A stretch of 37,462 bases of DNA from an uncultured Flavobacteriales bacterium (GCA_913045895.1 CAJWSQ010000004.1:1-37462), one strand, 5' to 3'; shown: positions 11,797 to 25,602, counted from the stretch's first letter. Notes: a model not told the origin generated them from the letters alone. Translations and numbers: made by a program.

Positions 11797-11816
11797 ATTT
11801 ACTTTTGCACGCAATT

Positions 11817-12440
11817 ATGGATGACAAACTCAAAGAGTTAATTGGTAAAATCTCAGAGACATTCATCAAGTACGGCATTAAAAGCGTTACGATGGATGAT
11901 CTTGCTAGGAACTTACACGTTTCTAAAAAGACGCTATATCAATACTTTGATGATAAACAAGATTTGGTGAAAACCTGCTTGAAACATCATATTGATGTTG
12001 ATATGTGTGAGATTAAAGCCAATTCTGAAAATCGAGTGAATGCCATTGATGAGATGTATAGTATGGGAAAAGCGGTTTCGCATAGAGCGAGTCAAATACA
12101 TCCATCCATTTTTTACGATTTAGAGAAATATTATCCTGAAGCCTGGGATTTATTTAACGATTACCGCAAAGGCCAAATTTACGAAACCATTAAAGACAAC
12201 ATTGAACGTGGTATGGCTGAAGGGCTTTACAGAAGCGATTTAAATGTTGACGTAATTGCTGGGATTTATGTTTTACGCATAGATGATTTAACCAATCAAG
12301 AAATATTCCCGAGCGATAAATACCCATTTGGAGATTTATATCTAGAAGTTATGCGCTATCACATTCGTGGAATGGCTAGCGATAAAGGAATTGAATACCT
12401 AAAACAACTTGTTGAACAAGAACGCAATAATCAATCATGA
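11817..12440 (+). CDS. TetR/AcrR family transcriptional regulator
   Basis: This 207-residue protein starts at ATG 11817; a TTG at 11805 in the same frame lies inside the promoter region and is less likely. The N-terminal helix-turn-helix fits the TetR family: FIKYGIKSVTMDDLARNLHV followed by SKKTLYQYFDDKQDLV, with the usual K-x-T-(L/I)-Y-x-(Y/H)-F recognition helix. The C-terminal helical domain, which binds the inducer in this family, is diverged and gives no ligand clue. It is the first gene of a tetR-tolC-adaptor-pump operon, and its stop overlaps the next start by four bases (ATGA). It most likely represses its own operon through the palindrome at 11755-11784 until an efflux substrate binds. 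Confidence 0.93.
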   Translation: MDDKLKELIGKISETFIKYGIKSVTMDDLARNLHVSKKTLYQYFDDKQDLVKTCLKHHIDVDMCEIKANSENRVNAIDEMYSMGKAVSHRASQIHPSIFYDLEKYYPEAWDLFNDYRKGQIYETIKDNIERGMAEGLYRSDLNVDVIAGIYVLRIDDLTNQEIFPSDKYPFGDLYLEVMRYHIRGMASDKGIEYLKQLVEQERNNQS

Positions 12441-13765
12441 AGAAAATAACACTTTTTAGTTTCTTGCTGATGGCTGTGTTTAAGCTGCAAGCTCAAACTG
12501 ATACGTTAAGTTTCAGCTTAGAGGAGGCGAAAGCCTATGCTGTAGAACATAGCTACTTTACAAGGCAAGCAGTGATGGATGAAGAAATCGCTCAAAAAAG
12601 AGTGAAAGAAACCACCGGAATTGGTTTACCACAAATAAGCGGATCAGGAAGTTTTCAAGATTACATTACGGTGCCAACTATGGTTCTTCCTGCAGGAACA
12701 TTTGGAAATCCAGAGCCGTTGGAGACAACCTTTTCTCAGCGCTATTCAGCTACTGCTGGCATATCCGTAAGTCAGATTTTATTTGATGGTTCTTACATTG
12801 TTGGCTTACAAGCTGCTCAAGTCTATCGCGACTTAGCAACTAACCAACGCGTGAAATCTGAGCAAGACATCAAAAATGATGTAACACAGGCTTATGCTGC
12901 AGTCTTGGTGGCACAAGAAAATATTGAAACTCTTGAGCGAAACTTAGAGCTACTGAAGGATACATATGAAGATACCAAGGCTATGTATTCAGAGGGTTTT
13001 GCTGAAGAGCAAGATGCCGATCAGCTACAGATCTTGTTCAGCTCAACTGAAAACACCTATGAAAATGCTAAAAGGTATTTAGTAATTGCTGAAAACCTAC
13101 TCAAATTCCAAATGGGTATTGAGGTAGCTTCTGAAGTGAGTTTGTCTGATGACTTGGATATGGTTGTGGAATACGGAAAAGAGAAAACGCTTATCGCTCA
13201 GCAATTCAGTTACTCAGAGAATATTGATTTTAAAATTGCCAAGACAAATGAAGACTTGCAGTTTTTGAATTTAAGAAATACCAAGGTTTCTTATTTGCCA
13301 AGGTTGAATGCATCGTTTAACTATCAGCAACAACACTTCTCAAATTCATTCTCTGATATCACCAATTATTGGTATCCTGCCACATATTGGGGGTTAAACT
13401 TATCAGTACCCATTTTTTCTGGTGGTCAAAGACATTTTCAAGTTCAACAGGCAAAGTTGGAATACGAAAAAGCTAGTCTACAAACAGAGCAAGCAAGTCA
13501 GAATTTAATTATTCAATACAACACTGCAAAAGCAGATTATATCTACACATTAAGTAGATATGAAAACACCAAAAACAACTTAGACTTGGTTCAAACCATT
13601 GTAGAAAAAGAAACTTTCAAATACCAAGAGGGTATGTCATCAAGTTTAAATGTGGCCAACTCTCAAATTCAGTTTTTAGAAATTCAATCAAACTACATAC
13701 AAGCCACGCTTGACCTAATTAACGCCAAATCAGAATTAGATAAAATCCTCAACAATTACCAGTAA
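12437..13765 (+). CDS. TolC family outer-membrane efflux channel
   Basis: This 442-residue protein has a signal peptide (MKKITLFSFLLMAVFKLQAQ) and the two-repeat OEP (TolC) layout: long coiled-coil helices rich in Gln, Glu, Ala and Asn (for example AYAAVLVAQENIETLERNLE) alternating with barrel strands (SATAGISVSQILFDG and ATYWGLNLSVPIFSGG, the two strand motifs common in this family). It forms the trimeric outer-membrane exit duct of a tripartite pump. It overlaps tetR by four bases and is followed after one base by the adaptor gene, so all parts of the pump are on one transcript. Confidence 0.95.
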   Translation: MKKITLFSFLLMAVFKLQAQTDTLSFSLEEAKAYAVEHSYFTRQAVMDEEIAQKRVKETTGIGLPQISGSGSFQDYITVPTMVLPAGTFGNPEPLETTFSQRYSATAGISVSQILFDGSYIVGLQAAQVYRDLATNQRVKSEQDIKNDVTQAYAAVLVAQENIETLERNLELLKDTYEDTKAMYSEGFAEEQDADQLQILFSSTENTYENAKRYLVIAENLLKFQMGIEVASEVSLSDDLDMVVEYGKEKTLIAQQFSYSENIDFKIAKTNEDLQFLNLRNTKVSYLPRLNASFNYQQQHFSNSFSDITNYWYPATYWGLNLSVPIFSGGQRHFQVQQAKLEYEKASLQTEQASQNLIIQYNTAKADYIYTLSRYENTKNNLDLVQTIVEKETFKYQEGMSSSLNVANSQIQFLEIQSNYIQATLDLINAKSELDKILNNYQ

Positions 13766-13766
13766 G

Positions 13767-14906
13767 ATGAAAGCAAAACACAGTTATTTAATCGCGCTAT
13801 TAACCTTGTTAGTAGCAGCTTGTGGAGGGAAGAAAGAAACCAGCTTTGATAAATTGATTGCTCAACGCGATAGCTTAATGAGTGAACAAACTGAACTAAA
13901 CAAAAAGCTGGAGGAAGTAGATGATAAAATTGCGAAACTTGATACTACTCGCAAAAAATTAAAAGTAACAGCATTTGAATTGCAACCAACTTCATTCAGC
14001 CATTACTTCGATATTTATGGTAATGTGGAGGCTGATGAAAACATCCAGATTTACGCTCAATCTTCAGGTGAGATTTTATCAATCAATGTAAAAGAAGGCC
14101 AAGAAGTAAAAGCTGGTCAGGTATTGATGCGTATAGATTCTGAGGTATTGCAACGCAATAAAGAGCAAGTTCAAACGCAGCTTAAATTAGCGAACGATGT
14201 TTATGAAAAGCAACAGCGTTTGTGGGATAAAAACATCGGTACCGAAGTTCAGTTTTTAGAGGCCAAAAACAACAAAGAGTCTTTAGAGAAACAACTGGCA
14301 GGTATCAATGCACAAATCGATATGTCAATTATTAAAGCTCCTTTTAGTGGTGTAATTGATGATATCTTCCCTAAAAGAGGTGAGATGGCTTCACCTGGAA
14401 TGCCATTGGTGAGATTGGTAAACCTAAACAGCGTTTACATCAATGCTGATGTTTCTGAACGTTACGTTTCAACTGTTAAATCTGGAACAAAAGTAAAAGT
14501 GCGTTTCCCAGAGTTGGATATTGAAATTGATACAACAGTTGTGCTTACAGGCCAGTACATCAATCCAAACAACAGGACATTTACCATTCGTGTGAATGTA
14601 CCAAACAAAGAGGGATTGTTGAAACCAAATTTATTGGCTCGTTTGAAAATCGAAGACTTCAATGCAGATTCTACAATCGTAATTCCAAACGGACTAGTAC
14701 AACAAACACCTAGTGGTGAAAACTTTGTATACCTATTGAAACCAAGTTCTGAAGGTCATCAAACAAAACGTGTACTGATTGATGCAGGCATGAGCTATGG
14801 AAACAAAACCATGGTGAAATCAGGTATCGAGCCTGGAGATTTGTTATTGAACAAAGGTGCTAGAAGTGTTAAAGATGGTCAAGAAGTTCAACTTGTAAAG
14901 GGATAA
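13767..14906 (+). CDS. RND efflux periplasmic adaptor (membrane fusion protein), lipoprotein
   Basis: This 379-residue protein bridges the inner-membrane pump and the TolC channel. It starts with a lipoprotein signal peptide ending in the lipobox LVAAC (Cys19), so it should be lipid-anchored. A short N-terminal coiled coil follows (about residues 28-65), unusual in that it precedes the lipoyl domain. The barrel-sandwich (biotinyl-lipoyl-like) half-motif GEILSINVKEGQEVKAGQVL and its partner (SIIKAPFSGVIDDIFPKRGE) flank the helical hairpin (about 135-185). The beta-barrel and membrane-proximal domains follow. It sits between the TolC and RND genes. Confidence 0.94.
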   Translation: MKAKHSYLIALLTLLVAACGGKKETSFDKLIAQRDSLMSEQTELNKKLEEVDDKIAKLDTTRKKLKVTAFELQPTSFSHYFDIYGNVEADENIQIYAQSSGEILSINVKEGQEVKAGQVLMRIDSEVLQRNKEQVQTQLKLANDVYEKQQRLWDKNIGTEVQFLEAKNNKESLEKQLAGINAQIDMSIIKAPFSGVIDDIFPKRGEMASPGMPLVRLVNLNSVYINADVSERYVSTVKSGTKVKVRFPELDIEIDTTVVLTGQYINPNNRTFTIRVNVPNKEGLLKPNLLARLKIEDFNADSTIVIPNGLVQQTPSGENFVYLLKPSSEGHQTKRVLIDAGMSYGNKTMVKSGIEPGDLLLNKGARSVKDGQEVQLVKG

Positions 14907-14918
14907 ATCCATTGAGTA

Positions 14919-17900
14919 ATGCAAGAAGATCAACAAAATATACAACCGGATAAAAAGCCAAAATCCATCAAGGAGTTTGCGCTTTCAACCATGTCGGTGA
15001 ATAACCGAACAACAGTAATTGTAATTACGGTAATTGTATTATTAGCCGGATTATTTTCATACCAATCCATGCCCAAAGAGGCGTTTCCAGATATTGTTAC
15101 CCCTGAGATTTATATCGGGACAGCTTATCCTGGAAACTCAGCAATGGATATTGAGAAGCTCATTACACGTCCTTTCGAGAAAGAGATCAACACGATTTCT
15201 GGTATCGATGAAATGACATCAACTTCTATTCAAGGTTATTCTTCTGTTCAAGTAACATTTGATTTTAGTGTTACTCCAGAGGAGGCACTTAGAAAAGTGA
15301 AAGACAAAATTGATGTTGCCATGAGTGATTCTGATTTCCCAGATGATCTTCCAGCAGATCCAAATGTCTTCGAGATGAACTTCTCTGAGTTGATGCCAAT
15401 TATGAATGTAAACCTTTCAGGTGATTTCAGTTTAGATCAACTTAAGGAGTACGGTGAGTATCTTGAAGATGAAATCGAAGACATCCCTGAAATTACATCG
15501 GTAGATATTAGAGGGGTAATGGATAAAGAGGTAAAAGTTGACTTAGACGTTCATAAAATGGAGTCTGTTGAAGTTAGCTTTGATAACGTAGCCAATGCTA
15601 TTTCTCAAGAAAACTTAACTCTTTCTGGTGGTGATATTAAAAGTGATGGTTACAACCGTTCTGTTCGTGTAATTGGTGAGTACTCTGATTGGAGAGAAAT
15701 TGAGAACATTGTGGTTAAGCACGAAAGAGGTAACACCGTTTACTTAAGAGATATTGCTATGGTATCTTTTGGTGAGCAAGAAAAAGAGAGTTACGCTCGT
15801 CAGTATTTGAACCCAGTGGTTTCATTAGATATCAAAAAGAAAGCCGGTGAAAACTTGCTTTTAGCATCAGATCAGATCAATGAAGTAATCAAAAAAGCAC
15901 AGGAAGAAGTATTCCCTGAAAACTTAGAGATTTCCATTACAAACGATCAATCTGATAACACCAGAACTCAGGTAGATGAATTGGCAAACAGTATCATTTT
16001 AGGTATGGTGCTAGTTGTTGTGGTTCTATTGTTCTTCTTGGGTTTACGTAACTCATTGTTTGTGGGTATGGCAATTCCGTTGTCTATGTTCTTATCGTTA
16101 TTTATCCTCAACATCATGGGGATTACCATGAATACCATTGTGCTTTTTGCTTTGGTATTGGCTTTGGGTATGTTGGTTGATAATGGTATTGTGGTGGTTG
16201 AAAACATCTACCGTTTAATGGATGAAGGTAAAAAGCCTCTGGATGCAGCCCGTCAAGGTGTTGGTGAGGTAGCTTGGCCAATTATTGCTTCAACGGCAAC
16301 AACTTTGGCAGCATTTATTCCACTGATTTTCTGGCCTGGAATTATGGGTGAGTTTATGGGATACCTTCCAATTACACTCATCATTGTATTGTCTTCTTCA
16401 TTATTTGTGGCATTGGTTATCAACCCCGTGTTTACAGCTTTATTTATGAAGTTAGAAGAAGAAGATGAGCAAATTCCTCGCAAGCGTTTGATCATTTACT
16501 TTGCTGTATTAGCGGTAAGTTTATTTGTAGATGTTGCTGGCGATGAAGTTGGGCCAATAAATGTTTTGGCAGGATTTATCGTGTCTATCGTTCTGATATT
16601 ATTCCTGAAAGATTTCAGTTTTTTATCAGATTCAACAAACAAGAAAAACATCCTTTTCCCATCGCTTGGGTTAATTGCAATGGCTCTTGTTTACTTTGTT
16701 GCAGGGCAAAATGTAAGTGCAAACTTTATTGGTGTAACGGGTTCATTCTTAATTGTGAATGCGTACATCATTTTCCCTTCTTCGCAGTTTTTCCAACGTA
16801 AAGGAATTCCAGCTTTAGAAGACATTTACGATCGATTTATCGTAACAGCACTTCGAGGCAAAAATCCATACTTATTCTTAGGTGGAACAGCTGGTTTGTT
16901 GGTTTTGGCGTTCGTTTTATTGATCGCTTTCACACCAAAGATCTTGTTCTTCCCGGTTAACCAGCCGCATTACCTAAACATCTTTATCGAGATGCCAATT
17001 GGTACCAATATCGAGAAAACCAATGAGGTTACTAAAGATATTGAGCGCACGGTGATTAATTACCTAAAAAAGTATGAAGAAGTTGATCCTGCCACTGGCG
17101 ATACGGTAAACTTCTTGGTAGAATCTGTAATTGGTCAGGTTGGTGAAGGTACTTCAGATCCAAAACAAGGTCAGCAAATGGGAACCACACCTCACAAGGG
17201 TAGAATTACGGTTTCGTTTGTGAAGTTTCAAGAACGTGAAGGTGTAATTACCGCTGATGTACAAACCGAAGTTCGTAATGCTATTAAGAGTTATCCTGGT
17301 GTAAAAATCACTGTAGATAAAGATCAAAGTGGTCCTCCAACGGGTGCACCAATTTCAATTGAGCTTAGTGGCGATGATTACTATGCAATGATGGAAGAAG
17401 CAGAATACATCAGAAGTATGATTGATGCTTCAAACATCGGTGGTATTGAAGAGCTAAAGTTAGATGTTGAGCAAGGTAAACCAGAGCTTTCTATTATAGT
17501 TGATAGAGATAAAGCAAGAAGGCTAGGTCTTTCTACATACAGCATAGGTAATGTATTCCGTACGGCTATTTACGGTAATGAAGTCTCAACTTACAAAGAA
17601 GGTGAAGACGATTACCCGATTTACGTGAGAATGGCTGAGGAATACAGAAACAATCCTGATTTCTTGATGAATCAACGTATTACGTTTAGAGATCCATCAA
17701 CGGGATCTATTGTACAAGTTCCGATTTCAGCTGTTGCAACCGATAAAAAGGTATCTACTTTTAGTGCTGTAAAACGTGCAGATATGGATCGTGTAATTAC
17801 CATATCATCAAACGTTACTGAAGGTTACAACGCCACAGAAATCAATCAGAAGATTAAGCAAATGTTTGCGAATTACGAGCTTCCAAAAGGCATGAAAGTG

Positions 17901-18551
17901 AGCTTTACTGGTGAGCAAGAAGAGCAAGCAGAAGAAATGGCATTCTTGTCTACTGCATTAATCATCGCGATGTTCTTAATCATCTTGATTATTGTAATGC
18001 AGTTTAACTCAATCAGTACTCCTTTTATCATTGGAGTTTCAGTATTCTTCAGTTTAATTGGGGTATTGTTAGGATTGGTAATCTTCCAAATGGACTTCGT
18101 TATTATGATGACCATGATTGGTATCATCTCACTGGCGGGTATCGTAGTGAACAACGCCATTGTATTGATTGATTACACCAATCAGTTGATTGAAGAGCGA
18201 AAAGAAGAGCTTGACATGGACGAAGAAGATCGTTTGAGTTTAGATGAAATTAAAGTGGCTATTGAGCAAGCTGGTAAAACGCGTTTACGTCCAGTATTAT
18301 TAACGGCAATTACAACTGTATTAGGTTTGATTCCGTTGGCAATTGGACTTAATATCGATTTCTTCAGCTTCTTTACAACGTTAGATCCAAACCTGTACAT
18401 GGGTGGTGATAACGTTGCATTCTGGGGGCCAATGTCATGGACCATCATCTTTGGTTTGACATTCGCCACATTCTTAACATTGGTTATTGTACCGGTGATG
18501 TATTACATCTTAAAAAGAATGAAATACGCGATGTTCCCAGTTAAGAGTTAA
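14919..18551 (+). CDS. RND family efflux pump, inner-membrane permease (AcrB-like)
   Basis: This 1210-residue transporter drives export using the proton gradient. It has the RND plan: TM1 near residues 30-50, a large periplasmic porter loop, TM2-TM6 from about 345, a second porter loop and TM8-TM12 near the end. In TM4 the AcrB Asp407-Asp408 pair appears as Asp421-Asn422 (MLVDNGIVVVEN), and the TM10 lysine (AcrB Lys940) is Asn1078 (GIVVNNAIVLID). It is about 170 residues longer than AcrB. Much of the excess lies between TM6 and TM7 (about 512-648), where four extra hydrophobic segments occur near 522-540, 547-565, 578-595 and 603-620. Substrate range is unknown. It is the last gene of the operon and is followed by a terminator. 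Confidence 0.95.
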   Translation: MQEDQQNIQPDKKPKSIKEFALSTMSVNNRTTVIVITVIVLLAGLFSYQSMPKEAFPDIVTPEIYIGTAYPGNSAMDIEKLITRPFEKEINTISGIDEMTSTSIQGYSSVQVTFDFSVTPEEALRKVKDKIDVAMSDSDFPDDLPADPNVFEMNFSELMPIMNVNLSGDFSLDQLKEYGEYLEDEIEDIPEITSVDIRGVMDKEVKVDLDVHKMESVEVSFDNVANAISQENLTLSGGDIKSDGYNRSVRVIGEYSDWREIENIVVKHERGNTVYLRDIAMVSFGEQEKESYARQYLNPVVSLDIKKKAGENLLLASDQINEVIKKAQEEVFPENLEISITNDQSDNTRTQVDELANSIILGMVLVVVVLLFFLGLRNSLFVGMAIPLSMFLSLFILNIMGITMNTIVLFALVLALGMLVDNGIVVVENIYRLMDEGKKPLDAARQGVGEVAWPIIASTATTLAAFIPLIFWPGIMGEFMGYLPITLIIVLSSSLFVALVINPVFTALFMKLEEEDEQIPRKRLIIYFAVLAVSLFVDVAGDEVGPINVLAGFIVSIVLILFLKDFSFLSDSTNKKNILFPSLGLIAMALVYFVAGQNVSANFIGVTGSFLIVNAYIIFPSSQFFQRKGIPALEDIYDRFIVTALRGKNPYLFLGGTAGLLVLAFVLLIAFTPKILFFPVNQPHYLNIFIEMPIGTNIEKTNEVTKDIERTVINYLKKYEEVDPATGDTVNFLVESVIGQVGEGTSDPKQGQQMGTTPHKGRITVSFVKFQEREGVITADVQTEVRNAIKSYPGVKITVDKDQSGPPTGAPISIELSGDDYYAMMEEAEYIRSMIDASNIGGIEELKLDVEQGKPELSIIVDRDKARRLGLSTYSIGNVFRTAIYGNEVSTYKEGEDDYPIYVRMAEEYRNNPDFLMNQRITFRDPSTGSIVQVPISAVATDKKVSTFSAVKRADMDRVITISSNVTEGYNATEINQKIKQMFANYELPKGMKVSFTGEQEEQAEEMAFLSTALIIAMFLIILIIVMQFNSISTPFIIGVSVFFSLIGVLLGLVIFQMDFVIMMTMIGIISLAGIVVNNAIVLIDYTNQLIEERKEELDMDEEDRLSLDEIKVAIEQAGKTRLRPVLLTAITTVLGLIPLAIGLNIDFFSFFTTLDPNLYMGGDNVAFWGPMSWTIIFGLTFATFLTLVIVPVMYYILKRMKYAMFPVKS

Positions 18552-18573
18552 AATGGGTAATAATTAGTTGACA

Positions 18574-18607
18574 AGCCCTTGTAGAGTTTTCTGCAAGGGC
18601 TTTTTTT
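18574..18607 (+). terminator. Rho-independent terminator of the efflux operon
   Basis: A stem of AGCCCTTG with CAAGGGCT, extended inward by a few weaker pairs, is followed by a run of seven T residues. It lies 23 bases after the pump stop codon. Confidence 0.88.
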
Positions 18608-18709: not shown

Positions 18710-19920
18710 ATGAAAAAGCTAACTATTACTATTTTTTGTATTATATCTTCTTTTTTCTGTCACAACCACCTACAAGCTCAACTTTACATAAATAATGCGG
18801 GTTATCAGTCAATTACGAATGGTAATACGGATTATGTGGGTATTAGAACAAGCACACCAGCTGCTCCATTAGAAATAAAGGAGGTAGCAGGTACAACTGG
18901 AGGGTCTCAATGTGTTGGATGTACAACTCTGCTACAACTTACAATGCTCTCATACGCTTTAAATCAACTCCAGCCTCTGGTATGATAAACCCTAATAATG
19001 CGTTTGATTTTATATTAAATGGAGGTAATTCTTTTACATTATCTGAGTATGATTATTCTACTCAGAATAGTTCAAATCTAGTGTCGTTTAGTTCTAGTAT
19101 ATCAAGGTTCTACAGTAATATTCGAATAAACGATGTGGCTGAACTTGGTGAGACGACTGCACCTGATAATACAACTGGGTATAGCTTATCATTAGGAATG
19201 AGAAATGTATCCGGAGGTGGATATTTAGGGAAGGGTGTTTCATTAGTGACAAATAGTTTGGGGAATTTCTATTTACTAATGAATACTACTACCAATGGAA
19301 TTGGATCGTACTCTCAGGCAGGTGATCACATTAGGCTAGAGGGTGATGAAACAAATAGTCAATTTACAATAGGATTTAGAAATACAAGGTTTAAAATTCC
19401 CGCATCAATTACAGGTGCAAGTAGATATCTGGACTTAAGTTTTATGGACGATAATATTTCAGGTACTGATAAGAGGTATTTTGTTATCAGAGCTTTATCG
19501 TCATCAACCAACGCACCTAATACACTTGAGTTTTGGGATCCTCAAGGAAATGGGAACGCATACTTTGCTTTACCTGTTAGAATTGGTGGGAATTATGCGG
19601 ATGTTTCTATGGTTTCCAATTCTCAATACCAGCTTTTTGTTTCTGGTGGTATTAGAACAGAATTGGTAAAAGTAGACAGTTATAGCAATTGGCCCGACTA
19701 TGTTTTCAAATCTGAATACAATCATCTATCTTTAGATGAACTAGAATCATACATAAATACAAACGGACATTTACCTGGAGTACCTGATGCAGAAACAGTA
19801 GAAAAAGATGGTATTGAATTAACTGAAATGAATGCAGTTTTGCTAGAGAAAGTGGAGGAGTTAACGCTTTACGTTCTTGAACTTCAAAAGCAAATTGATG
19901 AATTGAAATCTAATAACTAA
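18710..19920 (+). pseudogene. Tail-fibre-like secreted protein, frameshifted
   Basis: Two overlapping frames make one protein. Frame 2 from 18710 gives a signal peptide (MKKLTITIFCIISSFFCHNH, cleavage near LQAQ) and the start of the mature protein (VGIRTSTPAAPLEI, a motif common at the head of Bacteroidota tail-fibre-like proteins). Frame 1 continues from about 18905 (WMYNSATTYNALIRFKSTPA) to the stop at 19920. A missing base in roughly 18895-18940 would explain the shift; no slippery heptamer is obvious. The C-terminus has the widespread Bacteroidota module WPDYVFKSEYNHLSLDELES with HLPGVPDAE and a coiled coil (VLLEKVEELTLYVLELQKQI), similar in layout to phage tail-spike C-terminal trimerisation regions. 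The stop overlaps the next gene's ATG, so it heads a three-gene operon. It could be a real pseudogene, a sequencing error or phase variation. Confidence 0.75.
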
Positions 19921-20765
19921 TGCCTATGTTGAAATATAAATATTTGCTTTTATCAGCTGGGGTTTTAGTTTTTTTACTTTCATGTTGTAGAGACGATGAT
20001 TCGTGTTCTGATCCAACAAACCCAAAATGTAGCAACTACGATCCTTGCTATTACAGTGAAATACCAACGGCTTATTTCACAATAAAAGATGTAATAGTAT
20101 CAGCTCCTGACTATAATTCATATTCTTCTCAAATTTCTGATACATCTAGAGGTGGGTTGTTGGAGTTTGCTGCAAGCCCTAATTCTAACAATTCAATCAA
20201 ACATACTTGGTATTTGGGCAGCGAAGTGATTCATGATTCTTCTTTTATCCGTGATTTTTCGGATGTAGATTACAGGCCAGTTACAATTACTGTATCGCAT
20301 GTCATAGAATATGATGTAGATCCTACCTGTTATCCATATGCTTCTGGAAAAGACTCAACAAGTAGAACCTTTGTTTTAGCTAGATATTTCAATGACCTGC
20401 CCATATTTGGAACATACAGAGTAGCAGATAATGAAACTCCAAACGATTCATTTGATGTTACAATAAGAGTGTATGGAGTTACAAATAGTGGTTTGGTTAC
20501 AGATACAGTACCAATTACTAACGGTGACCAGTACATGGAGGATATAAGCTATCACAGAATTGAAGTTGTAAACCTAGAAAGAGGGAATCGAGTGATAAGA
20601 AATTCTACTCAATGTGGTTTCAATTTTGCATATAGTAACATTATAGGTAGACCTATTTCTAAGTGTGTATTCCGATTATCAGGTAGAAATAGAATCTCAA
20701 TTCTTTATTATGAACAATTTGAAGAAGAATATCACACGCTAATTGGAAAACGCCTACACCTATGA
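19920..20765 (+). CDS. Surface lipoprotein of unknown function (PKD-like domain)
   Basis: This 281-residue protein begins with a lipoprotein signal ending LLSCC, followed by Arg-Asp-Asp-Asp. An acidic run directly after the lipidated Cys is the Bacteroidota lipoprotein export signal, so the protein is probably on the cell surface. The middle (LEFAASPNSNNSIKHTWYLG through VTITVSH) resembles a PKD/Ig-like beta-sandwich. The rest is not recognised. The start codon overlaps the upstream stop (TAATG); a second Met at 19926 would serve equally well. Its own stop overlaps the next ATG by four bases. Codons such as ATA, AGA and AAT are frequent, as in the other two genes of this operon and unlike the efflux operon upstream. 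Confidence 0.75.
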   Translation: MPMLKYKYLLLSAGVLVFLLSCCRDDDSCSDPTNPKCSNYDPCYYSEIPTAYFTIKDVIVSAPDYNSYSSQISDTSRGGLLEFAASPNSNNSIKHTWYLGSEVIHDSSFIRDFSDVDYRPVTITVSHVIEYDVDPTCYPYASGKDSTSRTFVLARYFNDLPIFGTYRVADNETPNDSFDVTIRVYGVTNSGLVTDTVPITNGDQYMEDISYHRIEVVNLERGNRVIRNSTQCGFNFAYSNIIGRPISKCVFRLSGRNRISILYYEQFEEEYHTLIGKRLHL

Positions 20766-23683
20766 AAATTTTAAAGATTTTAAAAACAACGATATTGACA
20801 TTGTCATATGTGTCTTCATCATATGCTCAATGTGACGTAACTCAAATAAGTACAAATCCAATTGATGGTCAAGCTGTAAATGATCAATATATCAATTTGA
20901 TAGTTGAACCATTAGATGGAGTAAATTTAAACTACACCAATAATTCCTATTTAAATACAGGTTTTAATTGGTACCCTGGTAACCAAATTACTATTGATAA
21001 TTTAATTGATGATGGTTGGACAATACCGTGGGGTTCCAGTATCAACCAAATAAAAATGGTTAACCCATTTACAATTAATATGCCTTCTGAGTATTCATAT
21101 TTACGAGATGGTGCAAGTAATAAATTAACCGAATATAGATGGGAAGACGGATGGGAACTGATGTATATGAACATTGGGAAGTTCCCCAATGGAGACTCAA
21201 TAAGTAAACCTTCAGAGGGTACTTTTTATCATGATTACGGGAACTCTACAATAGGAGAAAGCTACACCCCATTAGTAAGCCCACCTGGACTACCTTTTTT
21301 TGTGTTATACAACAGGTATACAGGCTTACTGAGGTTTTTTGGAAGTCTTTGGGTAGAAGACTACTATACCTTTGAGAATTACGAGGTAAGGCTTACAATG
21401 CTAAATGGAGTATCAAACGATGTAAATGGAATGTTTAGGCACGCAGAATCTATTGATTTAGCACTAGATCAAGAAACGAATGTGTTGTCAATTAGAGTTC
21501 CCAAGGTTAAACCTACAAACCTAAACCAGTGGTTTGTAGCCGAATTTCAAATGGGATATGACCCCTGTGTTTGTACAAACAATACTGGTGAGATGGATTT
21601 TGAAATATTGGCTATTGATAGTATGTATGTCAATATTTCAGGAAGAAGTATTGCAATTACAGATCAAATTGATCCAAACAATTATATGCAAGATGATTTT
21701 TTGAATTTTACAGGAAATCAAGATGCTGGAAGTCGAATATATCCATACATGAATAATTTATATGAAGAGTATGAAACTAACCTAGATATATACAACCAAC
21801 AAATGAATGATTATAATGCGCAGCAAAATAATTTGGTAAGAAGCACTGTTGGCCAAATGAAAAAATTAGCAGTTGATGGAGTTTTATCAATCATTCCTGG
21901 AGGTGCTATAGCTGAATTTGCTATTGAAAGCGCTGCCCAGTTAGGTTTATCAAAAGTTATTAATGATACAAATGATTTGAAAAAGGCTATTGAAAAAGGA
22001 TCAAAAAACCTTTTAGGAAAAGGCTATGATTTTTTATCAGCCCAAATATTTGGTCAGGATGTAAATAAACCTGTACCACCAATTGTGCCAAGTGCAACAT
22101 TTGAAGAGTCTAGTTTTAGTGGATCTATTGTTTCAACATCTAGTATAAATACACCTCCAATGTATGTTCCTGGAAGTTTCCCAGGTAATAATCAGTCACC
22201 TAATTTAACAGGCCTTGGCCCTCATAATTTTCCTGCATATAATAAACCAGTTGGTTTGTTTGCAGTACTTGAAACGCCTAATTTATTGGCCAACTATGTA
22301 GAAATTTCCGCATCTGATAGCGAATATATTTCCGACATTAAAGTTGAAGGTACTGATGGAGAAAATCATGTTTGGTACAAGGGAACAGTTCACAAAAAAA
22401 GGAACTTCAAAAAACAGTTTTACTATAAAATTGATGATGCAATAAAATATGTCATAAATGAACATTTAGATTTTGATCCTGATAAAAGTTCATATTATGC
22501 ACAACTTGAGGTTGAGTATTTTAATAATTTGGATAGCAGTGTGATTGTTAAGTTTGATAGTATTAATTACCATATGGAACAGTATGGTGATTTTATTTCC
22601 AATATGGGTATAAGTAATCACTTTCCTGAACAAACAGTTAATGGCAATACAATTGGACAAGTTTTAATCTACAACAGTAATTGGACACCATTGAATAATC
22701 TCCATCAAATGACATTTAGTACGCAAATGGATATTGATATAGATTATAAAGACAGATATGTATGTTTCATGGATTCAATAACTAATCCACACTCAACTTG
22801 TGGATTGATAAACAATATGTCAATGAGTCAACTTGAAGCAGTATTCGATTTAAATGTAAGTAAGGTCAAACTAAAAATTATGGCTGACATGTACTTTGAT
22901 CAAATAGGTTCAAATGAAAAACAAGTTAACACCACTCAGGTCTTTACCCATTTGCTATATGATATAAACAGAGAAGAAAATTACGTTCAATTAGTAGATC
23001 ATTTCAGTGAAAACACCATGTATTATCCAGGTACTACTATACTTGATAACGAGTATATGGATCCTAATAACGATAAGGTATGGTGGCAGAATGGAAATAC
23101 TTTGTATGTCTATTCAGAAGATATCATTATTAAGGGAGATCTTCATGTTGCACCCGGATATGAACTTGTATTGGTGGCTCAAAATTCTGTAGAAACTAAC
23201 GGTAATGCTGACATTTACTCTGAGCCGATAACCATAGAAACAAATTCTAATTTTTGGGGAACTGATGATGGGCATCCTGCAACTTCAGATGAGGTTAGTT
23301 TATTTTGCTCTAACAGAGACTTATACAAAGCCTATCAACCATCTGAAATAGCAAGAAAAACAGGAGACACAGTTTCGGTAGATTCAAATGAAACCATACC
23401 CAACGATGAGAATGATTTATTGTTAAAACCAGAGGTAAGTATATATCCTAATCCTGCTAACGAATATGTAGATGTATTAATTCAAAATTCATCTCACAAT
23501 ACCGTATACGTAAAACTATATACCATTCAAGGTGGAGTATTATTAGATAAAAAAGTTTCTGGAGAGTTAAGCTCTCAGTTTAGAGTTATAATGAATAACA
23601 TTCCTCCTGGAACATATATTCTTCACTTAGTTACCGATAATGGCAATCAGTTTAGTGAAAAAGTAATTTTATCAAATAGATAG
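20762..23683 (+). CDS. Large T9SS-exported protein of unknown function
   Basis: This 973-residue protein has a signal peptide (MKILKILKTTILTLSYVSSS, cleavage near YAQ) and a C-terminal T9SS type A sorting domain (SIYPNPANEYVDVLI to EKVILSNR). The first ~320 residues look like beta-rich domains. Residues ~330-365 are a Gln/Asn/Tyr-rich helix (YEEYETNLDIYNQQMNDYNA), followed at ~366-402 by a hydrophobic, Gly/Ala-rich stretch (DGVLSIIPGGAIAEFAIESA). A Pro/Ser-rich linker (~430-490) leads to a second beta-rich half. A region near residue 800 (YSEDIIIKGDLHVAPGYELV) resembles the right-handed beta-helix sections often found just before T9SS domains. I recognise no enzyme. It closes the three-gene operon and is followed by a terminator. 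Confidence 0.8.
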   Translation: MKILKILKTTILTLSYVSSSYAQCDVTQISTNPIDGQAVNDQYINLIVEPLDGVNLNYTNNSYLNTGFNWYPGNQITIDNLIDDGWTIPWGSSINQIKMVNPFTINMPSEYSYLRDGASNKLTEYRWEDGWELMYMNIGKFPNGDSISKPSEGTFYHDYGNSTIGESYTPLVSPPGLPFFVLYNRYTGLLRFFGSLWVEDYYTFENYEVRLTMLNGVSNDVNGMFRHAESIDLALDQETNVLSIRVPKVKPTNLNQWFVAEFQMGYDPCVCTNNTGEMDFEILAIDSMYVNISGRSIAITDQIDPNNYMQDDFLNFTGNQDAGSRIYPYMNNLYEEYETNLDIYNQQMNDYNAQQNNLVRSTVGQMKKLAVDGVLSIIPGGAIAEFAIESAAQLGLSKVINDTNDLKKAIEKGSKNLLGKGYDFLSAQIFGQDVNKPVPPIVPSATFEESSFSGSIVSTSSINTPPMYVPGSFPGNNQSPNLTGLGPHNFPAYNKPVGLFAVLETPNLLANYVEISASDSEYISDIKVEGTDGENHVWYKGTVHKKRNFKKQFYYKIDDAIKYVINEHLDFDPDKSSYYAQLEVEYFNNLDSSVIVKFDSINYHMEQYGDFISNMGISNHFPEQTVNGNTIGQVLIYNSNWTPLNNLHQMTFSTQMDIDIDYKDRYVCFMDSITNPHSTCGLINNMSMSQLEAVFDLNVSKVKLKIMADMYFDQIGSNEKQVNTTQVFTHLLYDINREENYVQLVDHFSENTMYYPGTTILDNEYMDPNNDKVWWQNGNTLYVYSEDIIIKGDLHVAPGYELVLVAQNSVETNGNADIYSEPITIETNSNFWGTDDGHPATSDEVSLFCSNRDLYKAYQPSEIARKTGDTVSVDSNETIPNDENDLLLKPEVSIYPNPANEYVDVLIQNSSHNTVYVKLYTIQGGVLLDKKVSGELSSQFRVIMNNIPPGTYILHLVTDNGNQFSEKVILSNR

Positions 23684-23703: not shown

Positions 23704-23730
23704 AAAGCCCCTGTTGAAGGGGCTTTTTTT
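23704..23730 (+). terminator. Rho-independent terminator of the three-gene operon
   Basis: An AAAGCCCC/GGGGCTTT stem with a seven-base loop runs into seven T residues, 20 bases after the stop at 23683. Confidence 0.9.
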
Positions 23731-23805: not shown

Positions 23806-25602
23806 ATGATTCGCACTATATCAGTCTCTTTATTTTTTGTTTTTAGTACCCTTTTTTCATTTACCCAAACGATACGTTTTATTGATCCACCCAATTGGTT
23901 TTCTGGATTGAAAACAGATGAATTGTATTTGCTTTTGGTTGGTGATGATTTGGTGAATTTAGAAGATGTAGAAGTGGATTATCCTGGGATTTCCGTTCGA
24001 AAATGGGATCCGATGAACGATCATGATAAATATGCTTCGTTGGTTTTGAGAATTGAAAAAACAGTTCAACCCGGTACTTTTGAAATAGTAGTTAAAGGCA
24101 AAAAGAAGACAAAGGTTAGTTACGAATTAAAAGCGCGAAATAGTTACCAAGCGCAATCATTATCTCAGCAAGATCTGATCTACAATATCGAGTTAGATCG
24201 ATTTGTAAATGGAAGTACAGAAAACGACTCGCCCAAAGGATTTTTAGATAAAAAGATCAATACCAAATCTGATTCTAACCGACATGGTGGAGACTTAAAA
24301 GGGTTGCAACAGTTTTTAGAATATCCGCAATCACTTGGAGCAACAGCGGTTTCATTAAGCCCGGTTTTAGAGTGTAACCAAAAATCAAATTCATATCAGG
24401 GTTTAGCACCAACACATTCCTATAAAATGGATGCTCGCTTTGGCTCTACTTCTGACTTAACTTCAATCATTAATCAATTGCATCAATCAAACATGAAGTT
24501 TATTCAAGAGATGCAATTTAATCAGTGGGGTAACCAGCATTATTTGGTTCAGAATAAACCTTCAGAAAGATGGTTTCATCAAGCTAGTGATCACAATTCG
24601 GCAAAGCAATCTAGTCCAGAAGTACTGTTAGATCCTCATGTTTCTTATATCGATAAAAATCAGTTCAACGCAGAGAAAATAGCCCTGAATACGGTAGACT
24701 TAAATCAAGAAAACGAGCGATTAGAAAATTATTTGATTCAACAAACCATTTGGTGGGTTGAGACTTACCAAATTGATGCTATTAAAGTGCTTCAATATGC
24801 TCAAACAGATCAAATTTTCTTGCGCATTTGGCGCGATCGGTTGCTTGAAGAATACCCTTCACTTTTTGTTTATGCGGATATCGGTATAGAATCTGGCTTA
24901 AATGCGGTTACTCAGAGTTGGTTTATTGGTGAGTCTGGTCTTAACAAAGAGTTTCATAATCACCTCGAAAGTGTTGTGGATCAACAATTAGAAGAGTCTA
25001 TTCTACAATTGATGGAAGAAAATGAAGATGCAGTTTATGAAGCATTATCGGCAGACTTTTTACTTCCCAATCCTGAGAATTTGGTTTTAGAATTACCCGA
25101 AGCTGATACAGCTCATTATTTTGATTATTGTCATCAAGCGCTTGATAAATATAAAGTGGGAGTTGGATTACTGGCAACGCTTAGAGGTATTCCAGAGTGG
25201 AAGTCTGGAACTGAATTTTTAAGATCGAATCATTCGCTTTCAAATGCGAAATACCACAACTGGAATGCTGGTGAAAGAGATAGTTTGCAGCAATTGGCGT
25301 TTGATTACACTCAAAAATTATTTCAGTGGAGAGCTAAGAATAATGCTGTTGCTGAAGGTAGATTGCTTCAGTTCGCTCCCCAAGATGGTATTTACACCTT
25401 TTTCAGACATACTGCTGATGAAATTGTAATGGTTACTGTAAATACTTCAAGCCAATCTAAAGTGTTGGATTTAGCTCGATTCAATGAAATTGTAGTTCCA
25501 AAATCAAAGGCAGTTGATGTAATTTCAAATGAAGAATACTCTGTTTTCGATACTTGGCAACTGAAACCAAATGAAATCAGAATTACGTCTATTCAAGAGT
25601 GA
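23806..25602 (+). CDS. GH13 cyclomaltodextrinase/neopullulanase homologue, catalytically degenerate
   Basis: The 598-residue protein has a signal peptide (MIRTISVSLFFVFSTLFSFT), a Cyc-maltodextrinase N-terminal beta domain (DPPNWFSGLKTDELYLLLVG), a GH13 barrel (GGDLKGLQQFLEYPQSLGAT, SPVLE, YKMDARFGS) and a C-terminal beta domain. These match SusA-like amylases in order and length. However, the conserved regions have decayed. Region I DxxxNH reads E235-M-Q-F-N239-Q240. Region II, normally GFRVD, reads A325-I-K327-V-L329, so the nucleophile Asp is Leu. Region III has Asp358 where the acid/base Glu should be. Region IV NHD reads E432-A433-D434. It is therefore probably a non-hydrolysing periplasmic or secreted sugar-binding pseudoenzyme. 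No susCD genes are nearby. Confidence 0.85.
   Translation: MIRTISVSLFFVFSTLFSFTQTIRFIDPPNWFSGLKTDELYLLLVGDDLVNLEDVEVDYPGISVRKWDPMNDHDKYASLVLRIEKTVQPGTFEIVVKGKKKTKVSYELKARNSYQAQSLSQQDLIYNIELDRFVNGSTENDSPKGFLDKKINTKSDSNRHGGDLKGLQQFLEYPQSLGATAVSLSPVLECNQKSNSYQGLAPTHSYKMDARFGSTSDLTSIINQLHQSNMKFIQEMQFNQWGNQHYLVQNKPSERWFHQASDHNSAKQSSPEVLLDPHVSYIDKNQFNAEKIALNTVDLNQENERLENYLIQQTIWWVETYQIDAIKVLQYAQTDQIFLRIWRDRLLEEYPSLFVYADIGIESGLNAVTQSWFIGESGLNKEFHNHLESVVDQQLEESILQLMEENEDAVYEALSADFLLPNPENLVLELPEADTAHYFDYCHQALDKYKVGVGLLATLRGIPEWKSGTEFLRSNHSLSNAKYHNWNAGERDSLQQLAFDYTQKLFQWRAKNNAVAEGRLLQFAPQDGIYTFFRHTADEIVMVTVNTSSQSKVLDLARFNEIVVPKSKAVDVISNEEYSVFDTWQLKPNEIRITSIQE

What the first reader, a model, noticed from the sequence alone, without database searches (positions are those of the whole stretch)
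18710..23683. AT-rich three-gene operon for surface proteins: tail-fibre-like, LES lipoprotein, large T9SS protein
The three genes overlap by 1 and 4 bases and share a terminator. They encode a secreted protein with a phage-tail-like coiled C-terminus, a lipoprotein with the acidic run after Cys that signals surface exposure, and a 973-residue T9SS cargo. Their codon use is more A/T-rich than the efflux operon before them and no function is known. The set could form a surface complex, adhesin or contact-dependent device.
Basis: partly seen in the sequence, partly recalled or inferred. Interest (0 to 1): 0.6.

Follow-up and report, generated by a model that had tools for sequence, protein, structure and literature searches.

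The report
Tail-fibre, lipoprotein, T9SS-cargo surface operon
Three neighbouring genes in this Bacteroidota bacterium (a tail-fibre-like protein, a lipoprotein and a large type-IX-secreted protein) form an undescribed gene set that recurs in the same order across the phylum, in which a phage-type fibre domain is paired with secreted cargo, most likely to build a cell-surface recognition or delivery device.

Summary
The three genes are real and form one unit between two terminators, but the first (FIB) is frameshifted: its signal-peptide start (18710-18985) and main body (18910-19920) lie in different frames. LIP (19920-20765) and T9 (20762-23683) are intact; T9 ends in a T9SS type A sorting domain. 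AT-richness is modest and codon use is average, so nothing points to foreign origin.

The gene set is not random. FIB-LIP-T9 recurs in this order, often with 1-4 bp overlaps, across Bacteroidota: of 57 T9-family genes, 22 have both partners upstream, 9 LIP only, 9 FIB only. LIP and T9 co-diverge (Mantel r 0.81); FIB is a looser partner.

FIB's C-terminal domain is about 50% identical to that of a structural protein lying among baseplate and neck genes of uncultured myophages. Elsewhere it precedes other T9SS cargo (proteases, a lipase) and RHS-like giants; in the same genus it sits with an unrelated lipoprotein and a lipase.

Best reading: a Sec-exported, phage-derived trimeric fibre paired with a cognate lipoprotein/T9SS-cargo couple on the cell surface. 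Function, complex formation and activity of this frameshifted copy remain unproven. No description was found in the searched open literature.

The parts
18573..18602 (+). terminator-like hairpin closing the upstream efflux operon
   Evidence: 13-bp stem plus T run; the scan found 4 terminator-like sites against 2.5 expected by chance, so position matters more than the match
18710..18985 (+). FIB gene, N-terminal piece: Sec signal peptide (..LQA|QLY, fits the Bacteroidetes Q-rule) and a tail-fibre VGI..TP motif
   Evidence: Q-rule PMC5837995; VGIGT..P-type motif in 72 of 122 FIBs, 0 of 325 background proteins
18895..18945 (+). zone in which FIB changes reading frame (approximate)
   Evidence: the related FIB in L172 is a single 404-aa ORF
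18910..19920 (+). FIB gene, main body (336 aa, other frame), no Pfam, NCBIfam or significant PHROG family
19588..19917 (+). FIB C-terminal domain (about 110 aa, coiled coil; ..PDYVF..HLP.VPSA..G..L.EM...LL.KVEELTLY..)
   Evidence: 49-51% identity over 72-78 aa with the end of a structural protein of uncultured myophages
19920..20765 (+). LIP: 281-aa lipoprotein, lipobox Cys then RDDD, conserved C.DP.NP.C.NYDPC motif
   Evidence: overlaps FIB by 1 bp and T9 by 4 bp
20762..23683 (+). T9: 973-aa Sec/T9SS cargo of a family with no described fold
21143..21574 (+). T9 conserved core: EDGWEL...LYNRYTGLLRFF...YDPCVC
   Evidence: alignments A4-A6
21830..21931 (+). T9 hydrophobic helical segment at the place where most relatives carry a P(Y/F)(V/I)GxAxxxxDFFxGGG-like stretch (coordinates approximate)
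   Evidence: low model confidence, function unknown
23441..23668 (+). T9SS type A C-terminal sorting domain (residues 894-969)
   Evidence: PF18962, E 8e-10; TIGR04183; matches solved CTDs by fold
23704..23726 (+). terminator-like hairpin closing the trio

Best explanation
The locus encodes one surface system of three parts. FIB is a Sec-exported tail-fibre-like protein with a constant, phage-related C-terminal domain, probably a trimerisation or folding-chaperone tail, and a variable N-terminal part that would bind a ligand. T9 is exported through the type IX secretion system and cut at its C-terminal sorting domain. LIP is an outer-membrane lipoprotein that has evolved together with T9 and is its cognate partner, most likely as anchor or receptor. 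I propose that FIB supplies recognition and the LIP/T9 couple supplies the surface-bound working part, FIB being a generic adaptor that other loci pair with other T9SS cargo. Shown: gene order, tight coupling, phylum-wide conservation, LIP-T9 co-divergence, homology of FIB-C to a myophage structural protein, FIB next to other T9SS cargo, T9SS signal, host SprA. Inferred: trimerisation, surface position of FIB and LIP, physical complex, ligand binding. Given the frameshift, this particular copy may be inactive.
For: FIB-LIP-T9 in order in the window, G005, G015, G020, G002, G203, G249, G170, G143 and named relatives such as Agaribacillus aureus and Ignavibacteria MAGs; of 57 T9-family genes 22 have both partners upstream, 9 LIP only, 9 FIB only, 17 neither; commonest LIP-T9 gap -4. 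T9 and LIP distances correlate, Mantel r 0.81, p 2e-4, against 0.36 for T9 and FIB-C. FIB-C is 49-51% identical to the C-terminus of proteins encoded beside baseplate wedge and head-tail adaptor genes; a further FIB-C protein lies beside a tail sheath gene. In G002, G020 and L128 the protein in the FIB slot ends instead in Peptidase_S74, the phage tail-spike chaperone. In 60 other FIB loci the next gene is a T9SS-tail protein in 20 (control 4/337), within four genes in 28 (control 11/337); partners include M4, S8, trypsin and reprolysin-like proteases and RHS proteins, and C25 and RHS proteins on contigs classed as viral. Same-genus G001 has FIB + unrelated lipoprotein + PGAP1/DUF676-like lipase with a CTD + second lipoprotein. 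Tandem FIBs have C-part identity 0.54-0.86 (array means) and N-part 0.25-0.35. Host has SprA.
Against: No structure, interaction or expression data. FIB has no T9SS tail and no lipobox, so how it would cross the outer membrane is unknown. 17 of 57 T9-family genes have neither partner upstream (some lie near contig ends), so T9 can do without them. The window FIB is frameshifted. The T9 models are low-confidence (pLDDT 64) and gave no fold beyond the sorting domain. Pfam gives no domain for LIP or FIB.
Confidence: 0.5

Rival explanations
1. Antagonism module: T9 is an effector exported by the T9SS, LIP is the lipoprotein that protects the producer, and FIB aims the effector at target cells.
For: LIP and T9 co-diverge like a cognate pair. 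Extra LIP copies without their own T9 occur (L107, L109, L117, L127) as does an orphan LIP in G013 (L065), as with orphan immunity genes. In the same genus the T9 slot holds a lipase flanked by two related lipoproteins. FIB also precedes RHS proteins, one with a Cytotoxic domain and a small downstream gene. A hydrophobic Gly-rich segment is common in the T9 family.
Against: No toxin domain or known fold was found in T9; 9 loci have FIB-T9 without LIP, which a toxin-immunity pair would not tolerate easily; LIP usually lies upstream of T9, whereas known immunity genes usually lie downstream.
Confidence: 0.22
2. FIB is an assembly factor: a periplasmic or outer-membrane folding chaperone that keeps the T9SS cargo export-competent, without any ligand-binding role.
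For: FIB directly precedes many unrelated T9SS cargos; it has a signal peptide but no export tail; its C-domain occupies the slot of an S74 chaperone domain.
Against: N-terminal parts vary strongly between tandem FIBs whereas a chaperone should be constant; arrays of up to eight FIBs without adjacent cargo exist (L259); most T9SS cargo of these bacteria has no FIB.
Confidence: 0.13
3. Ordinary co-transcribed adhesins or nutrient-binding proteins with no joint device.
For: Surface proteins are often clustered in Bacteroidota; the T9 models look like strings of beta-sandwich domains.
Against: Order and overlaps are conserved across classes of the phylum, and LIP and T9 co-diverge.
Confidence: 0.1
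4. In this genome the module is a decaying remnant (a statement about this copy, compatible with the others).
For: FIB frameshift; related copies are also broken: in-frame stops in T9 of G020 and G015, T9 frameshift in L060/L106, truncated T9 in L064, split T9 in L095.
Against: LIP and T9 are fully open here; a single frame change in a draft metagenome-type assembly can be an error.
Confidence: 0.3

Closest known systems
T9SS type A cargo proteins (Por_Secre_tail / TIGR04183)
   Same: T9 has signal peptide and CTD; host has SprA
   Different: the rest of T9 is a family without Pfam domain or recognised fold, coupled to LIP and FIB
Phage tail fibres / tail spikes with intramolecular chaperone (Peptidase_S74, endosialidase type)
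   Same: FIB-C is shared with a structural protein of uncultured myophages; S74 replaces it in the same operon slot in three relatives; VGIGT..P motif
   Different: FIB is Sec-exported and encoded with T9SS cargo, not with virion genes; the window FIB has no S74 match
Flavobacterium johnsoniae sprCDBF gliding-adhesin operon (own knowledge)
   Same: operon of surface proteins built around a T9SS cargo
   Different: no SprB repeats, SprC, SprD or SprF seen here; no tail-fibre domain known there
TANFOR / RHS polymorphic toxins of Bacteroidetes (PMC7073777)
   Same: modular secreted proteins near T9SS substrates; FIB also precedes RHS proteins
   Different: no TANFOR, RHS or toxin domain in the window trio

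Membership tests
T9SS type A cargo | C-terminal sorting domain above curated cut-off | tested here: met
   39.3 bits against 27; TIGR04183 38.8 against 23
T9SS type A cargo | host encodes the T9SS translocon | tested here: met
   SprA_N, E 1.6e-116, over cut-off; other components not tested
T9SS type A cargo | export and CTD cleavage observed | not testable with these tools
   needs proteomics
Surface-exposed (LES) lipoprotein | lipobox Cys | tested here: met
   LLSC/LSCC at residues 19-23 by inspection; no signal-peptide predictor was run
Surface-exposed (LES) lipoprotein | lipoprotein export signal right after Cys | tested here: inconclusive
   RDDD in the window, but relatives have CKH, CKREE, CKKCHD; consensus recalled from own knowledge
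Phage tail-fibre C-terminal domain | homology to virion proteins encoded among tail genes | tested here: met
   49-51% identity over 72-78 aa; neighbours baseplate wedge and head-tail adaptor, and tail sheath beside another FIB-C protein; no match in INPHARED phages
Peptidase_S74 (endosialidase chaperone) | Pfam PF13884 match | tested here: not met
   none in the window FIB; present in the same slot in L035, L066, L128
Phage tail-fibre C-terminal domain | trimeric fold | not testable with these tools
   only monomer prediction available; FIB was not folded
Polymorphic toxin with immunity gene | recognisable toxin domain | tested here: not met
Polymorphic toxin with immunity gene | protein neutralising the toxin | not testable with these tools
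   LIP-T9 co-divergence is compatible but not proof
sprCDBF-type gliding operon | SprB repeats and PorP/SprF-like partner | tested here: not met
   no such Pfam match in the trio; flanking genes are efflux and amylase-like

The most novel reading that the evidence does not exclude
Bacteroidota have domesticated a myophage tail-fibre domain into a Sec-exported, array-forming family of recognition fibres (FIB) that are systematically encoded with T9SS-exported or RHS cargo and deliver or display it on chosen target surfaces. The window trio would be the FIB-LIP-T9 branch of such a fibre-guided secretion system.
Probability: 0.3. Interest if true: 0.85.

Novelty: new variant of a known kind. Interest (0 to 1): 0.62.

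Why it matters
T9SS carries much of what Bacteroidota display or secrete, yet what gives its cargo target specificity is largely open. A phage-related fibre family encoded in front of proteases, lipases, RHS proteins and an unknown multi-domain cargo, with constant C-termini and variable N-termini, offers a concrete, testable candidate for that specificity. It also gives a genomic marker (the FIB C-domain, in 70 of 396 sampled genomes of the phylum at E 1e-12) for finding effectors that current databases call hypothetical.

Tried and rejected
Foreign origin by codon use: rejected, synonymous codon use is average. Pore-former idea for T9, raised by long strands around a helical insert: two fold searches found only the sorting domain and generic Ig-like folds, so not claimed. 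Fold of LIP: not predicted, both jobs went to T9; Pfam on nine LIPs gave nothing. PDB sequence search: only CTDs for T9, nothing credible for FIB (59) or LIP (60). FIB-C in INPHARED phages: none; found in IMG/VR contigs instead, some of which look like host DNA. First genome-contig query failed for lack of a conserved stretch; redone with another alignment. Literature searches gave no description of the trio or of a FIB-T9SS link; subscription papers are mostly not held.

Full report
WHAT IS IN THE WINDOW. The trio lies between an RND efflux operon (TetR, OEP, HlyD, AcrB-type genes at 11805-18551) and a cyclomaltodextrinase-like gene at 23806. Terminator-like hairpins lie at 18573-18602 and 23704-23726 (four found against 2.5 by chance, but placed exactly at the two borders). 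LIP (19920-20765, 281 aa) and T9 (20762-23683, 973 aa) overlap by 4 bp, and FIB ends 1 bp into LIP. FIB is not one reading frame: 18710-18985 gives a signal peptide and the start of the fibre, 18910-19920 gives the rest in another frame. The closest relative, in the same-genus genome G001, is one intact 404-aa ORF, so the frame change near 18895-18945 is either damage or an assembly error in a 371-contig draft.

COMPOSITION. GC of the three genes is 0.33-0.35 (4th to 17th percentile of 328 genes sampled from the window and 400 kb of its genome), GC3 0.23-0.25 (3rd to 12th), but synonymous codon use scores at the 45th to 73rd percentile, and other T9SS-tail genes in the sample have similarly low GC3. 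The genes are a little AT-rich but use the host's codons. In G001 the same interval, between the efflux gene (76% identical) and the amylase gene, holds a gapdh gene and no trio, so the module is an accessory block.

DOMAINS. T9 has a T9SS type A sorting domain and the genome has SprA. Nothing else in T9, LIP or FIB matches Pfam, NCBIfam or the PDB convincingly. AlphaFold models of T9 and of a relative, L107, are low-confidence (pLDDT 64); Foldseek recognised only the sorting domain and generic Ig-like folds.

CONSERVED MODULE. T9 homologues in the same family have LIP and FIB upstream in G005 (several copies), G015, G020 and G002. LIP occurs in 6 of 35 family genomes and in 6 of 396 phylum genomes; a T9-family core occurs in 16 of 396. 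A genome scan with the motif [LFV][IVM]LYN[RK]YTG gave 37 further loci with names, including Filimonas, Niastella, Hymenobacter, Agaribacillus, Aureivirga, Flaviaesturariibacter and Ignavibacteria MAGs. Of 57 T9-family genes, 22 have FIB and LIP upstream, 9 LIP only, 9 FIB only, 17 neither; the commonest LIP-T9 spacing is -4. LIP and T9 distances correlate strongly over 30 loci (Mantel r 0.81, p 2e-4), T9 and FIB-C only weakly over 15 (r 0.36). LIP and T9 thus behave as a cognate couple, and FIB as an interchangeable partner.

FIB IS PHAGE-RELATED AND GENERIC. The FIB C-domain was found in 70 of 396 phylum genomes and 16 of 35 family genomes. In IMG/VR contigs it forms the C-terminus of proteins encoded beside a baseplate wedge subunit (L306), a tail sheath (L309) and head-tail adaptors (L311, L313); identity to the window domain is 49% over 78 aa (L306) and 51% over 72 aa (L313). 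In three relatives the protein in the FIB slot ends in Peptidase_S74 instead. A VGIGT..P-type motif occurs in 72 of 122 FIBs and 0 of 325 other proteins. I read 60 FIB loci: the next same-strand gene encodes a T9SS-tail protein in 20 (control genes 4 of 337), within four genes in 28 (control 11 of 337); 8 more are followed by proteins of 1000 aa or more. The control comes from one genome (G000), so the enrichment is indicative rather than exact. Named partners are M4, S8, trypsin-like and M12B reprolysin-like proteases, RHS with a Cytotoxic domain, and C25 and RHS/DUF6443 proteins on contigs classed as viral. In G001 the FIB operon carries an unrelated lipoprotein, a PGAP1/DUF676-like lipase with a CTD, and a second related lipoprotein. 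Tandem FIBs (up to eight, L259) keep the C-part (mean identity 0.54-0.86 per array) while the N-part is near the level of unrelated sequence (0.25-0.35).

INTERPRETATION. Shown: a conserved, coupled, phylum-wide gene set; a T9SS cargo; a lipoprotein that co-diverges with it; a fibre protein sharing its C-domain with a myophage structural protein and found with many cargos. Inferred: FIB forms a trimer, reaches the surface and binds something through its variable part; LIP anchors or receives T9. The main rival is an effector-immunity couple, supported by extra and orphan LIP copies but without a toxin domain, and with nine LIP-less FIB-T9 loci against it. A chaperone role for FIB is the third possibility. 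Because FIB is frameshifted here and several related copies are broken, the window copy may not be functional.

NOVELTY. The searches of open papers found no account of this set or of a fibre-T9SS link. The ingredients (T9SS cargo, lipoproteins, tail-fibre domains) are known; their systematic pairing is what seems new. I therefore file it as a new variant of a known kind, and give the stronger reading, a fibre-guided secretion system, a probability of 0.3.

Noticed in passing
   Followed up: partly
L172:4423-8800 (same-genus genome): FIB followed by a lipoprotein, a PGAP1/DUF676-like lipase with T9SS tail and a second lipoprotein related to the first.
   Followed up: partly
L259:1915-10187: Eight tandem FIB genes, 5 bp apart, with constant C-part and very different N-parts.
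   Followed up: partly
L264:9386-18229: Two FIB genes followed by a 2099-aa RHS protein ending in a Cytotoxic domain and a 96-aa downstream gene.
   Followed up: no
L301:153-3618: FIB directly before a gingipain-type (C25) protease with T9SS tail, on a contig classed as viral but probably host DNA.
   Followed up: no
L305:1-9248: FIB-T9 family gene followed by a second FIB-CTD pair, with an integrase-like gene nearby (recognised by eye only) on a contig classed as viral.
   Followed up: no
L270 and L264: FIB genes beside pilin- or secretin-like genes (recognised by eye only), a possible second context for FIB.
   Followed up: no
G005 loci L028, L029, L030, L031, L036, L067: Several near-identical partial copies of the trio, some at contig ends, one interrupted beside a transposase-like gene (recognised by eye only).
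   Followed up: partly
L065:7995-8762; L107, L109, L117, L127: Orphan or extra LIP genes without their own T9, as expected of immunity-like or receptor genes.
   Followed up: partly
L170:6497-7675: In the same genus the trio's site between efflux and amylase genes holds a gapdh gene.
   Followed up: yes
window 21830-21931 and T9 relatives: Hydrophobic Gly-rich segment (PYVGxAxxxxDFFxGGG-like) conserved in much of the T9 family; role unknown.
   Followed up: partly
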